Made by a program: the position numbers and the translations under genes. A DNA stretch of 25,646 bases from a virus. The stretch covers positions 1 to 25,646 of IMG/VR virus record IMGVR_UViG_3300013094_000250; one strand, given 5' to 3'. Positions 14,636 through 25,646 of this stretch are shown here, one piece after another. Numbering within the stretch: the first letter of the stretch is position 1; each line of letters opens with the position of its first letter. A model generated the notes under the pieces. It made no database searches, was not told the origin of the DNA, and saw only the letters and a program-made list of their open reading frames with translations.

Positions 14636-14732
14636 GAAACAAAAAATAGACCCTAGAACAAAAAAATGTATAGATAGATATAAAAATAAAATAAACAGAC
14701 TCATATGGAAAGGGTTTCCGCAAAAGAAATAG
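14634..14732 (+). pseudogene. Frameshifted 5' portion of the homing-endonuclease gene
   Basis: Starting at ATG 14634, 32 codons read MKQKIDPRTKKCIDRYKNKI, then NRLIWKG and a stop at 14730. KINRLIWKG matches KIKPLIWKG inside the downstream endonuclease, and the text after it in the second repeat (VTSVDI) matches VSAKEI, which is in the other frame here. Joining the frames at the AAAGGG run (14708-14713) restores a full first repeat. One missing G explains this. It could be a natural inactivating mutation, a sequencing error or, less likely, programmed frameshifting. Confidence 0.7.
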
Positions 14733-15409
14733 CAAAAAAATGCAATTTAGATCCTTCTATAATTTCAGATGAGGTCAAAAGATTTGGTTCTGAAGAAGAC
14801 AAAAAAAAGATAAAAGAAAATGGTAAAATAAAATTATTAAATGATAATAAATTAAAAACTAATTTTGGAGAAAATAATAAAAGATTAGAAAAAAGTAAAA
14901 AATTATTTTTTGAAAAAATAAAACCTTTAATATGGAAAGGAGTTACTTCAGTAGATATTGCCAATATACTCGGTTACACTAAAAATGGAGACATCTGTAT
15001 AAGAAAACATATAAAAAGATTCGGAAGAGAAGAAGATTATAAACAGTTATTACAAAATGGAATCAACAAAAGAAGAGACACTTTGATTTTATTAATGAAA
15101 AATAAAACCAGTGTACCTGAAAAAATGTTGTTTGATATAATAAAAGAAATATATCCTTCTGCTAAACACAAATATAAAATAATAAATGATAAAAATTATT
15201 ATTGGGAAATGGATGTTGCTATACCAGAAATAAAATTAAACATAGAATATGATGGTGAATACTGGCATAAAAACAATAGAGATAGAGATTATAAAAGAGA
15301 TTTATTTTTGATATCTAAAGGTTGGAAAATAATAAGAATAGAGTACAAAGATTCACCCACATATGAGACACTTTTAAAAGAAGTTATGGAGAAATGTGCT
15401 TTTCAGTAA
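14705..15409 (+). CDS. Free-standing homing endonuclease (Vsr/EDxHD-like nuclease with HTH repeats)
   Basis: A 234-aa frame with two DNA-binding repeats and a C-terminal nuclease. Repeat 1 (VSAKEIAKKCNLDPSII, ending RFGSEEDKKKIKENG) and repeat 2 (VTSVDIANILGYTKNG, ending RFGREEDYKQLLQNG) look like helix-turn-helix units of the NUMOD type. The nuclease, from about residue 135, has SVPEKMLFDII, then WEMDVAIPEIKLNIEYDGE with YWH, a DRDYKRD segment and KGWKIIRIEY. This is the order of Vsr-like and EDxHD homing endonucleases. Such genes spread by cutting alleles that lack them. It lies opposite to the late genes between gp21 and gp4, is much more AT-rich than either, and overlaps the 3' end of gp4 by 26 nt, all consistent with a recent insertion. 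ATG 14705 is probably not the original start; see 14634-14732. Confidence 0.82.
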   Translation: MERVSAKEIAKKCNLDPSIISDEVKRFGSEEDKKKIKENGKIKLLNDNKLKTNFGENNKRLEKSKKLFFEKIKPLIWKGVTSVDIANILGYTKNGDICIRKHIKRFGREEDYKQLLQNGINKRRDTLILLMKNKTSVPEKMLFDIIKEIYPSAKHKYKIINDKNYYWEMDVAIPEIKLNIEYDGEYWHKNNRDRDYKRDLFLISKGWKIIRIEYKDSPTYETLLKEVMEKCAFQ

Positions 15410-21292: not shown

Positions 21293-24200
21293 TTATAATC
21301 CAAATCTTGATCTGGAAACATTAAAGTTCTGTGCAACTTCAGTAGAATTCAAGGCTCTGTTATAAAGTCTTGTGATATATACATCTCCTTGGAAATAATA
21401 TTGACCATTTGATCTTCTTCCGATATTAAGTGCCTGTAATGTCTTTACAGTGGTATGGTTTAAAACTGCACTAGTATCAATTGCTCCATTCTTATAAAGA
21501 TAAGCTGTACTAGAATCCGCATCCCAAACATAAGTTACATGATTTGGACCACCACTTATTATATTAGTTTCATCTAGAGTATATCCATCTCCACTTGCTG
21601 ATAAACCAGAAGAAATTGCTGCTGGTATAAATCTTAGTCCATTTGTTCCTGTATTTCCTCCAGTATGTATTTCAAATTGTTGATAATTTCCAGAAAATAA
21701 GAAATTTACATTTGCAGTATTATATTCTGACCAATCAAATACCATTTCAAGGGTAAATGATTCATTTTCTGGTGTATAGCTTCCGAAGTTTACATATCCA
21801 CTAGAACCATCAAACTGCATTAGTCCACTATTAAATGATACACCATTGTTGAGTGTTCCATTATTGTTACTTGGACTCAAATCATACCATGTATTTCCTG
21901 TACCGGGATAACTTCTTGAATCATTTGCATCAAGCCAGAGAACAAGACCATCCTGTACGATTGCTGGTACTGTGTAGATGTTGTATTTGTTGTTGAGATA
22001 GGTTTCTACTGCATATCTTTCCGTATCATTTAATACACGATTGTATATTAATACTTCTGCAATATCACCGTTAAAGAATCTATCAACATTTGAATTATCA
22101 CGTTGATATCCTATCAATATATTATTATTACCATCCGATGTAAAAACATTTGAAGTGGAAGTTGCTATGCTTACACCATTAACTAATACAGGCCAAGTTT
22201 GTGAAACAGTATCAAATGGTAATCCTAAAAGATAAGGTGTGTTATTTGTATAGGTAAAAATATTATCTAAACCTCCTGATGCTCCTAATTTATAATATTC
22301 AGGAAATGATGCAAATGTATTATTACTCTTAAATGCAAAAGGCCAACCTTCATCTACATTTATTCCTCCATAACTCAATGGAGGATAGTAACCATCACCA
22401 GATCCATTGCCTCTATTTATAGCAACTATATAAACAGTATGTGATCCATCAACACCTAAAACCGTATCTGTGAGATACTGACTAGAACCATCAAATCTTA
22501 CAACAGGATTTCCGTTTAAAATATTTGTTGTCAGTACTGGTTGATTTGAAGGGTTTGACTGAATAGCATGATTGTTACTTCCTGATTTATCAGACCATTG
22601 TGATATAGATTGTCCGTCTGTCGCAGGTGTTCCTGAATTTAAAACAGTTGCTGAATCACTTGCATCTAACCAAAGAGCAAGACCACTTGTTGGTAAGAAA
22701 GGATATGCAAGAGCCCTACCATCATTATAAAGATAACTTATTTCATCTCGTGAAAGGGCTCTGTTCCAGATGCCTACTTCATCTAAACTTCCTGTTAAAT
22801 ATTGAATACCACCATACCCAAATCCAAGTTTAAAAGGTTGTCCAATAAAATTTCCAGAATAATTTCCAGTAGATGGATCAGCATTGCCATTTATATAAAG
22901 AGTCAATACACCTTCTTTTGAAACAAGTGCAACATGCGACCAAGAACCTAAAGGAATGGTGTTTGTACTTTCTATGCGTCCATTATTATCCGCATAGAAT
23001 CCGATATTCCCATTATTATACCAAAAACAATAATTTCCAGTAGAATCATTATTACCTTGGTTAACAATAGCAGTAGCATTGATACTACTTGGATTAATCC
23101 AAGCCGAAAAAGTAAAGTCTGATGTTCCTATAGTTAATCCGGGATCATTTTCTAACCAATTAGATCCACCGTAAACAGCATCTCCACTTAAAATTCCTGT
23201 TCCGTTTGTTACTCCTCCATTATTTGTAAGAGTATATCCATTACCACTAGAATCACTCCATGTAGTATCATCTAAACTCCAGTATGCAACAATATTATCC
23301 TTTAGATTGTATGGTTGTTGGTTGAATGGATATGCAAGTCCTTGACCAGTATTATAAAGTTTTGTTATTTCATCTTGGGAAAGGGCTCTATTCCAGATAC
23401 CGACTTCATCAATATTTCCATCATATTGAAGTCCATTTATATTAAAATATACATAATCAGTAACACAACCAAGCGTTATTTGAGTAGAAGTAAAGTCTGC
23501 ATAATCACTAAAAGTTCCATCTAAAACTCCATTTATGTAAACAGAAGTTGTGTTATTATTTCGGGAGAGAGTAACCATTGTCCATGACCCTGTGGGTATG
23601 GTTGCATTTGTAGTATATACATCTCCTCCAGATGAAGTAAAAATGCTCAAATAATTTCCATTATTAAAACCCACTGACCAACCATCTGTATTACCACCAT
23701 TTATACATTGTCTAAGATCTAATGAATATCCTGTGTGACTTTCAAATCCTCCAGTACCATAATCAGTTGGGTTTATCCAATAATTTGCTGATATGTCTCC
23801 ACTTCCTATATTAGCCAGATTATTAAAATTAGATGTCTGTAAATAACTTTGAGTACCTTGTGGATTCAGATAAGCATCTCCACCTAGAATACCTGTACCA
23901 ACTGATACATTACCTACTGATGTAAGATTATATCCATTATTTGTTAAATCTTCCCATGAAGAACTATTAAGACCCCAGTAACCAATCAATCCAAGTTTAA
24001 GTCCTGTGAATCTGTCTTTGGTTACATTATAATTCTGTGTAATTTCATTAGTACTTAAAACTCTGTTATATATTCTAGAAAGACCAACATTACCATAAAG
24101 ATATTCCTGTCCTCCTGCTTGATTATCACCAATTGAAAGATATGGATTGGTTCCTTGATTTAATGTACTGTATCCAAAATATGTACTATAGACATTAACA

Positions 24201-25132
24201 CCATTTATATAAAAAACAACATTACCATCTTGGAAAGTCACAACCAAATGTTGCCAATTATTATCTGTAATAGATGGACCTGTTATATTATTTCCTGTAG
24301 CACCACTTGAAAAATAATATGTTCCATCACCCCATGTACCTATTGCATATTGCTCCCAACCACCACCGGGTCCACCTTGTCCTGCATAAGAAAGTAAAGC
24401 ACCCCATTGGTTATCACCTGTAATATTACACCAAGTTTCAAGAGTAAAATTATTTGTTAAATTTAAAACTTGATTTGGATCTTGGAAATCGATTGATTGA
24501 TTGCCATTAAAATTAAAATAACTTGGTGCTTGAGAATTATATGTTGCACCACCATTATTTGTTCCTACAAGTCCACTTGCTTCATCGATCCATGAGCTTC
24601 CATTACCTGAATATCCAAGAGCATCTGTATAGAACACAAGACCATTAGTTACATAAGGGGGAAGTGGGGGATTGTTGAAAGGATATTGATTTGCTAGACC
24701 AAAATTATAAAGAGCAGAAACATCAGTCTGTCTAAGTGGTTTTGTCCAAATTCCAACCTCATCTATTTTTCCTACAAATTGATTACCCGAACCAGAATTA
24801 TCATACCCTAGAGCAATTGGTCCACTATAATCATTAGAATCTCCATAAGAAACTGATTGAGGAATTCCATTAACCCATGCTAAAAAGTCTCCATTGTTTC
24901 TAGAAACAACTATATGATACCATGTTCCTGTTTGAAATGAATATGAACATAAACGATTACCAAACTGATTAGGGGAATTTAAATCTATTCCTGTTCCTGC
25001 TCCTATCGCTATTCCAACACCACCCGATCCATTATTGGGATTGGTTATAAGTTCATTTGCTTGACTAGTAAAACTTGTAGCATTAAACCAAAGTGAAATT
25101 GTAAAATCTCCAGATAAATTGACTGTTTTCAT
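21293..25132 (-). CDS. Giant LamG-module virion protein, downstream part after an in-frame stop
   Basis: 1279 aa composed of LamG/concanavalin-A-like modules. The first (residues 1-151) lacks its N-terminal half, which is encoded just upstream beyond one in-frame TAA. Five complete modules follow at about 160-375, 378-602, 608-811, 813-1054 and 1058-1279. Modules 3 and 4 have the 'GYW/AYWSLDD...NGY' opening and the DEVGIWNRALS closing. Modules 2, 5 and 6 are the 'GLVLWLDA(N/S)DS' type. The ending, NFNVSRSRFGL, matches the end of the 1018-aa protein (NYNAMVAKFGL). The likely role is glycan binding at a fibre. The ATG at 25132 has no Shine-Dalgarno and lies one codon after the TAA, so it is more likely an internal Met of a longer protein than a designed start; reinitiation is possible. 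Confidence 0.75.
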   Translation of the reverse strand: MKTVNLSGDFTISLWFNATSFTSQANELITNPNNGSGGVGIAIGAGTGIDLNSPNQFGNRLCSYSFQTGTWYHIVVSRNNGDFLAWVNGIPQSVSYGDSNDYSGPIALGYDNSGSGNQFVGKIDEVGIWTKPLRQTDVSALYNFGLANQYPFNNPPLPPYVTNGLVFYTDALGYSGNGSSWIDEASGLVGTNNGGATYNSQAPSYFNFNGNQSIDFQDPNQVLNLTNNFTLETWCNITGDNQWGALLSYAGQGGPGGGWEQYAIGTWGDGTYYFSSGATGNNITGPSITDNNWQHLVVTFQDGNVVFYINGVNVYSTYFGYSTLNQGTNPYLSIGDNQAGGQEYLYGNVGLSRIYNRVLSTNEITQNYNVTKDRFTGLKLGLIGYWGLNSSSWEDLTNNGYNLTSVGNVSVGTGILGGDAYLNPQGTQSYLQTSNFNNLANIGSGDISANYWINPTDYGTGGFESHTGYSLDLRQCINGGNTDGWSVGFNNGNYLSIFTSSGGDVYTTNATIPTGSWTMVTLSRNNNTTSVYINGVLDGTFSDYADFTSTQITLGCVTDYVYFNINGLQYDGNIDEVGIWNRALSQDEITKLYNTGQGLAYPFNQQPYNLKDNIVAYWSLDDTTWSDSSGNGYTLTNNGGVTNGTGILSGDAVYGGSNWLENDPGLTIGTSDFTFSAWINPSSINATAIVNQGNNDSTGNYCFWYNNGNIGFYADNNGRIESTNTIPLGSWSHVALVSKEGVLTLYINGNADPSTGNYSGNFIGQPFKLGFGYGGIQYLTGSLDEVGIWNRALSRDEISYLYNDGRALAYPFLPTSGLALWLDASDSATVLNSGTPATDGQSISQWSDKSGSNNHAIQSNPSNQPVLTTNILNGNPVVRFDGSSQYLTDTVLGVDGSHTVYIVAINRGNGSGDGYYPPLSYGGINVDEGWPFAFKSNNTFASFPEYYKLGASGGLDNIFTYTNNTPYLLGLPFDTVSQTWPVLVNGVSIATSTSNVFTSDGNNNILIGYQRDNSNVDRFFNGDIAEVLIYNRVLNDTERYAVETYLNNKYNIYTVPAIVQDGLVLWLDANDSRSYPGTGNTWYDLSPSNNNGTLNNGVSFNSGLMQFDGSSGYVNFGSYTPENESFTLEMVFDWSEYNTANVNFLFSGNYQQFEIHTGGNTGTNGLRFIPAAISSGLSASGDGYTLDETNIISGGPNHVTYVWDADSSTAYLYKNGAIDTSAVLNHTTVKTLQALNIGRRSNGQYYFQGDVYITRLYNRALNSTEVAQNFNVSRSRFGL

Positions 25133-25135
25133 ATA

Positions 25136-25646
25136 TTATTCAGTTTGTAGGAAGTTAGTTCCATTAAACACTGCTGCATTATTTATTATACCAGTATCAG
25201 AAGTCACGGAACTTGTTGGGTCAAATAATGTAAGTCCATGTCCTGTAGCATCTGAACGTGTGCCACTTGTTTCATCCATATTCCAGTAAGCTGAAATTCT
25301 TCCTGTTAATGTGTATGTACAAGATCCGTCATCTATATTAGCATTTGGGTTATAGTTGTCTGCTACTCTATTTGTACAACCAAAGCTGTACCCATAATAT
25401 GTTACATTACCCCATGTGCCTTCTAATGGATAGTGAGCAGGATAATATACATTGGCATGACTTATATAACCATAGTTATGAGACTGTGCTTGGATTGTTC
25501 CTATATCTAGTATACCACCATAGTTGATACTTGAGTCCAAGAAGGAAGCAGAGAGTAATTCTCCACTGGTATTGTTATAACTTTGGTCATAGAATGTTCC
25601 TTGATAAATATCACTATTATTGAAGCTATAATCATGGAAATCGGCA
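25136..25646 (-). CDS. Upstream part of the giant LamG protein, cut by in-frame TAA
   Basis: The minus-strand frame is open to the end of the window, so the gene begins outside; a TTG at 25540 is not a start. The visible 169 residues contain repeats of the 'FYDQSYNNTSGEL' and 'SASFLDSSINYGGI' type, then a cysteine motif beginning CTNRVADNYNP and ending DDGSC. Last comes the first half of a LamG domain (AYWNMDETSGTRSDATGHG, then AVFNGTNFLQTE). The TAA at 25136-25138 stops it exactly where the next strand should begin, and the downstream frame (YMKTVNLSGDFTISLWFN) continues the domain in the same phase. The CTNR...DDGSC motif is common in Bacteroidota surface proteins. This and the 1279-aa frame are probably one gene or were recently one. 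Confidence 0.75.
   Translation of the reverse strand, partial: ADFHDYSFNNSDIYQGTFYDQSYNNTSGELLSASFLDSSINYGGILDIGTIQAQSHNYGYISHANVYYPAHYPLEGTWGNVTYYGYSFGCTNRVADNYNPNANIDDGSCTYTLTGRISAYWNMDETSGTRSDATGHGLTLFDPTSSVTSDTGIINNAAVFNGTNFLQTE

What the first reader, a model, noticed from the sequence alone, without database searches (positions are those of the whole stretch)
25115..25200. One in-frame TAA splits a LamG domain of a giant lectin protein
Seen: the upstream frame ends ...FNGTNFLQTE-TAA and the same frame continues YMKTVNLSGDFTISLWFN. Together they form one normal LamG domain, when compared with intact copies in the same cluster (for example SNWLENDPGL... then FTFSAWIN). There is no frame change, only the stop. 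UAA followed by U is normally an efficient stop, and other genes here use TAA as a true stop, so code reassignment is unlikely. Possible explanations are a nonsense mutation that trims the fibre, a host-range switch by point mutation, low-level read-through giving long and short fibres, reinitiation at the ATG one codon later, or a sequence error.
Basis: seen in the sequence. Interest (0 to 1): 0.6.

Follow-up and report, generated by a model that had tools for sequence, protein, structure and literature searches.

The report
Phage lectin domain split between genes
In an uncultured T4-like phage, the stop codon noticed inside a fibre's lectin domain looks like an ordinary gene boundary: a second, diverged fibre gene pair in the same phage is cut at the same place in the same domain, so the two half-domains are probably made as separate proteins that join to hold the fibre together.

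Summary
In detail: TAA at window 25138-25136 (minus strand) interrupts one LamG domain without a frame change, and ATG follows one codon later. A 228-bp identical contig-end overlap identifies record G001 as the neighbouring part of the same, or a near-identical, phage. G001 carries a second, diverged LamG gene pair (44% identity, dS about 1) cut at the same place, again by TAA with ATG just behind. There the second half lies in the +1 frame, so read-through could not fuse it. No other LamG domain among about 316 in 292 loci is split this way. The 9-mer TAATATATG at the break is the gene boundary used elsewhere in this phage and in a relative. The phage hardly uses Shine-Dalgarno sites, and both ATGs sit in start-like contexts. 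AlphaFold puts the break in a short loop of a complete LamG domain (pLDDT 90). Best reading: two stop-start-coupled genes whose half-domains close one LamG domain between two chains, joining two fibre subunits. The two-gene part is well supported; the reassembly is inference. A nonsense mutation, a sequence error and read-through are disfavoured. It is a rare variant of known kinds: coupled gene pairs, two-piece fibres and two-chain lectins.

The parts
25136..25646 (-). 3' end of fibre gene B1; it continues into record G001 (L013:1-3623), 1301 aa in all; ends with LamG N-half ...VFNGTNFLQTE*
   Evidence: 228-bp identical overlap with G001, one open frame across it
25139..25309 (-). LamG N-half (about 57 aa: strands 5-9, 36-39, 44-49 and 54-56 of the modelled domain)
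   Evidence: profile positions 4-56, 55 bits; structure model
25136..25138 (-). TAA stop of B1, in the loop after strand 54-56
25130..25138 (-). Stop-start junction TAATATATG; the identical 9-mer joins gp15 to gene A1 in the same phage (L013:13993-13985) and two fibre genes in relative L285
25130..25132 (-). ATG start of gene B2; its start-context score equals the median of known starts and beats 94% of internal ATGs
24677..25132 (-). LamG C-half at the N-terminus of B2
   Evidence: profile positions 61-217, 121 bits; structure models
21293..25132 (-). Gene B2, 1279 aa: LamG C-half plus five further LamG domains

Best explanation
The TAA is the normal end of one fibre gene (B1, 1301 aa) and the ATG three bases later is the normal start of the next (B2, 1279 aa). 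Ribosomes that stop at TAA most likely restart at the adjacent ATG (stop-start coupling), giving about equal amounts of two proteins. B1 ends in the first part of a LamG beta-sandwich and B2 begins with the rest. Most likely the two parts close into one lectin-type domain and so dock the LamG-rich B2 onto B1. The paralogous pair A1/A2 does the same: A1 is a conserved small protein encoded beside gp15, extended by a Pro-Thr linker and a LamG N-half, and A2 has the C-half followed by an arylsulfotransferase-like domain. Shown: the split, its recurrence at the homologous site in another frame, gene-like junction and start context, purifying selection on both halves, position in a loop of the model. 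Inferred: coupled translation, reassembly between chains, docking role.
For: Paralogous pair A1/A2 in G001 is cut at the homologous point: LQT-TAA-T-ATG-MNIVPLSGDF against LQTE-TAA-TAT-ATG-MKTVNLSGDF. The two split domains are sisters among 149 LamG domains (support 0.98; 44% identity against at most 35% to any other). dS is 0.9 (N-half) and 1.3 (C-half) with dN/dS about 0.4 in both, so both halves stayed under selection. The break is found nowhere else in about 316 LamG domains. The junction 9-mer is an ordinary gene boundary in this phage and a relative. Almost no Shine-Dalgarno use; both ATGs are in start-like context. Read-through model: complete LamG domain, pLDDT 89.9, stop in a loop. 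The C-half alone is modelled less well (82.5; strand 115-124 lost; C-terminus down from about 90-96 to 55-76). Fold matches are concanavalin-A-like lectin domains, including a cyanophage tailspike. About the same joint takes whole inserted LamG domains in phage L045. A1's first 165 aa are a stand-alone gene beside gp15 in relatives, so the LamG N-half is an added C-terminal tail. Published: coupling needs very short gaps, and pairs at -8 to +10 nt are enriched for subunits of one complex (PMC10666635).
Against: No expression or protein data. No orthologue of either pair was found in other phages, so persistence is judged from two copies in one phage, which could have exchanged sequence. The window's TAA rests on a single contig; no reads are available. 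The N-half alone is not recognised by Pfam. AlphaFold was run on one chain read through the stop, not on two chains.
Confidence: 0.62

Rival explanations
1. The genes are separate, but the halves do not reassemble: the break is a recombination joint between fibre modules, and each half is a harmless leftover.
For: Fibre modules in this phage group are shuffled and often end at stop-start boundaries. A1 carries an extra, unpaired N-half. A 17-base identical stretch lies beside the joint in both loci.
Against: Both halves stay under purifying selection (dN/dS about 0.4), together lack almost nothing, and sit next to each other in both loci.
Confidence: 0.2
2. Nonsense mutation (or decay) that truncates the fibre; B2 is a remnant or is translated by accident.
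For: A single-codon stop in frame, with the domain otherwise complete.
Against: The paralogue is cut at the same point by a different stop arrangement. ATG lies directly behind the stop in both loci (about 1% chance each). B2 has no further stop over 1279 aa.
Confidence: 0.07
3. Recoding: read-through of TAA here and +1 frameshift in the paralogue make a minor long fibre beside a short one.
For: Both loci could in principle give a whole LamG domain if recoded; the paralogue's second half is in the +1 frame.
Against: Two different recoding events would be needed at homologous sites; neither is needed, because a start-like ATG is present in each. The 2-base difference between stop and start fits separate genes, not a selected reading frame.
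Confidence: 0.06
4. Sequencing or assembly error at 25136-25138.
For: One metagenomic contig, the stop lies about 500 bases from its end, no reads available; the exact junction was not found in other viral contigs.
Against: The same break in a separately assembled record at a homologous site; no comparable breaks in about 314 other LamG domains, nearly all from metagenomic contigs.
Confidence: 0.05

Closest known systems
LamG / Laminin_G_3 (PF13385), concanavalin-A-like lectin domain
   Same: Sequence profile, strand order and fold; five further copies follow in the same protein.
   Different: The domain is shared between two ORFs.
Two-chain legume lectins (pea, lentil; PMC8834014)
   Same: One concanavalin-A-like jelly roll built from a small and a large chain.
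   Different: There one precursor chain is processed (from general knowledge); here two genes. No sequence kinship was tested.
Stop-start (termination-reinitiation) coupled gene pairs (PMC6728339, PMC10666635)
   Same: Gap of 1-3 nt, same strand, likely subunits of one complex.
   Different: The boundary falls inside a protein domain.
Two-gene tail fibres LtfA/LtfB of T5-like phages DT57C and DT571/2 (PMC4728585)
   Same: One fibre made by two consecutive genes, the second proposed to attach to the virion through the first.
   Different: There the fibre is divided between genes, not a single domain in two; no LamG reported in the passages read.

Membership tests
LamG / PF13385 | Profile match over the domain | tested here: met
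   Halves match profile positions 4-56 and 61-217 of a LamG profile built here; Pfam matches B2 with six stretches but finds nothing in the N-half fragment alone
LamG / PF13385 | Beta-sandwich fold of concanavalin-A type | tested here: met
   AlphaFold of the read-through domain pLDDT 89.9; Foldseek hits to lectin-type domains, best E 2.5e-12
Coupled stop-start gene pair | Same strand, gap within -8 to +10 nt | tested here: met
   Gaps +3 nt (B) and +1 nt (A)
Coupled stop-start gene pair | Reinitiation actually occurs | not testable with these tools
   Needs a reporter or proteomics
Stop-codon read-through / frameshift fibre | One recoding event that joins the halves, conserved in copies | tested here: not met
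   In frame in B, +1 in A; the frame relation is not conserved
Reassigned stop codon | TAA found in frame in other genes, another stop used as terminator | tested here: not met
   TAA ends 32 of about 49 checked genes
Two-chain lectin (functional analogy) | Two chains form one sandwich | tested here: inconclusive
   Single-chain model only; C-half alone modelled less well

The most novel reading that the evidence does not exclude
A split LamG domain acts as a plug-and-socket joint: a virion-bound protein carries the N-half on a tail or linker and separate adhesins or enzymes carry the C-half, so the phage attaches interchangeable modules by completing one lectin fold between two chains.
Probability: 0.4. 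Interest if true: 0.75.

Novelty: new variant of a known kind. Interest (0 to 1): 0.5.

Why it matters
If right, what reads as a broken gene is a working joint. It would give phages a simple way to attach and exchange adhesins, offer a natural split-protein pair, and warn annotators that an in-frame stop inside a domain need not be a mutation or an error.

Tried and rejected
An exact search for the junction with any codon at the stop position found no other viral contig, so no other alleles could be compared. LamG tblastn in annotated phages: no match. Close relatives chosen by portal and neck proteins have no orthologue of either split pair; where they have LamG it is not split. Genome contigs gave only distant LamG. 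I first read the 250-290 aa 'C then N' proteins as cut at exactly the same joint; the alignment shows their cut lies about 10-15 residues earlier, so they are only loosely supportive. Code reassignment was rejected. Literature searches for split LamG or half-domain tail fibres gave nothing directly comparable.

Full report
What is there. The window is a 25,646-base virus record with T4-like structural genes: major head protein, head closure, head-tail adaptor, baseplate wedge, and giant LamG proteins, mostly on the minus strand. The TAA is at 25138-25136 and the next ATG at 25132-25130 in the same frame. A LamG profile runs to position 56 just before the stop and from 61 just after it.

The missing upstream part. 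Record G001 (IMGVR_UViG_3300013093_002697, 35,275 bases) shares its first 228 bases exactly with the end of the window. The overlap is at both contig ends and the two gene sets complement each other (portal and tail sheath stabiliser in G001; head protein, adaptor and baseplate in the window), so it is most simply the next piece of the same or a near-identical phage. Read across it, the upstream frame is one gene of 1301 aa, B1. B2, after the stop, has 1279 aa.

The decisive comparison. G001 holds a second pair, A1 (525 aa) and A2 (682 aa). A1 ends ...VFNHNWLQT-TAA and A2 starts one base later, ATG-AAT-ATA... = MNIVPLSGDFSFSLWFN. In B it is ...VFNGTNFLQTE-TAA-TAT-ATG = MKTVNLSGDFTISLWFN. The sites are homologous; the stop-to-start distance differs by two bases, so the second half is in frame in B and in the +1 frame in A. 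The two split domains are each other's closest relatives among 149 LamG domains (support 0.98, 44% identity). They have diverged to dS about 1 with dN/dS about 0.4 in both halves. The simplest history is one ancestral split, a duplication, and long maintenance as separate reading frames. In a scan of 292 loci with about 316 LamG domains no other domain is divided between adjacent ORFs, so random breaks and assembly errors of this kind are rare in such data.

The junction looks like a gene boundary. TAA is the commonest stop. Nearly all starts lack a Shine-Dalgarno site; the head protein gene is the clearest exception. TAATATATG also joins gp15 to A1 in this phage and two fibre genes in relative L285, while TAAAATATG and similar join fibre genes in L280, L284 and L286. 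In a start-context model trained on 44 genes, the B2 ATG scores at the median of known starts and above 200 of 212 internal ATGs; the A2 ATG is above 191 of 212. Met is 0.5% in these fibres, so an ATG within two codons of a random stop is a 1% event.

Structure. AlphaFold of the read-through domain (TAA as Gln, 60 sequences) gives mean pLDDT 89.9 and pTM 0.89. The stop is residue 58, in the coil between strand 54-56 and residues 63-64 (residue map). Foldseek finds concanavalin-A-like lectin domains: arabinanase AbnA domain 4, trans-sialidase lectin domains, the lectin-like part of clostridial neurotoxins, and a cyanophage Pan3 tailspike. These are fold-level matches and say nothing about toxicity. 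The C-half alone is modelled at 82.5, loses strand 115-124 and becomes poor at its C-terminus, as expected if the N-half helps to complete the sandwich; this is suggestive only. The joint is tolerant elsewhere: in L045 one protein has the order full, N, N, full, C, C, which reads as LamG domains nested inside each other at about the same joint. A group of 250-290 aa phage proteins carries the C-part first and the N-part last, a circular permutation with its cut 10-15 residues earlier.

Role. In relatives the first 165 aa of A1 form a small gene of their own (or are fused to gp15) beside gp15. In this phage that protein is extended by a long Pro-Thr repeat and LamG N-halves, and A2 carries the C-half followed by an arylsulfotransferase-like domain. 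This suggests an anchor-and-module arrangement in which the LamG domain is closed between two chains. B1/B2 would be the same device with a string of LamG domains as the module. This step is inference. Published work shows that coupling by reinitiation needs very short gaps and that such pairs often encode subunits of one complex (PMC10666635); that some tail fibres are made of two consecutive gene products, the second proposed to attach through the first (PMC4728585); and that a concanavalin-A-type jelly roll can consist of two chains (PMC8834014).

Verdict. Not a nonsense mutation in all likelihood. Two genes, a shared domain, a rare arrangement seen twice in one phage. The separate-genes part is well supported (about 0.8); reassembly of the halves is plausible (about 0.7 given separate genes).

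Noticed in passing
L045:5680-8310 (also L231): A phage protein with LamG parts in the order full-N-N-full-C-C, which reads as LamG domains nested inside one another like Russian dolls.
   Followed up: partly
L196:1144-1944, L094:5683-6441, L095:496-1356, L003, L008, L043, L073, L079: Small phage LamG proteins with the C-part first and the N-part last: apparent circular permutants.
   Followed up: partly
L013:12410-13987 (G001): A1 contains a very long Pro-Thr repeat plus a second, unpaired LamG N-half in tandem with the split one (68% DNA identity over 142 columns).
   Followed up: partly
L013:10360-12408 and L013:3645-8072: Two fibre-region proteins share an arylsulfotransferase-like C-terminal region (Pfam hit in A2; 36% identity between the two), unusual for virion proteins.
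   Followed up: no
window 14705-15409: Plus-strand DUF559/MTES_1575 endonuclease-like gene between gp13 and gp21 of the minus-strand head cluster, possibly a homing endonuclease; L098, L105 and L110 have other ORFs inserted between gp14 and gp13.
   Followed up: no
L102:18492-20270: The gp21 protease ORF is 592 aa instead of 224, with the conserved parts separated: a possible intein or insertion.
   Followed up: no
window 25419-25646 and G001 1-228: The two contigs end in the same fibre gene with a 228-base identical overlap, so together they give a longer piece of one phage genome.
   Followed up: yes
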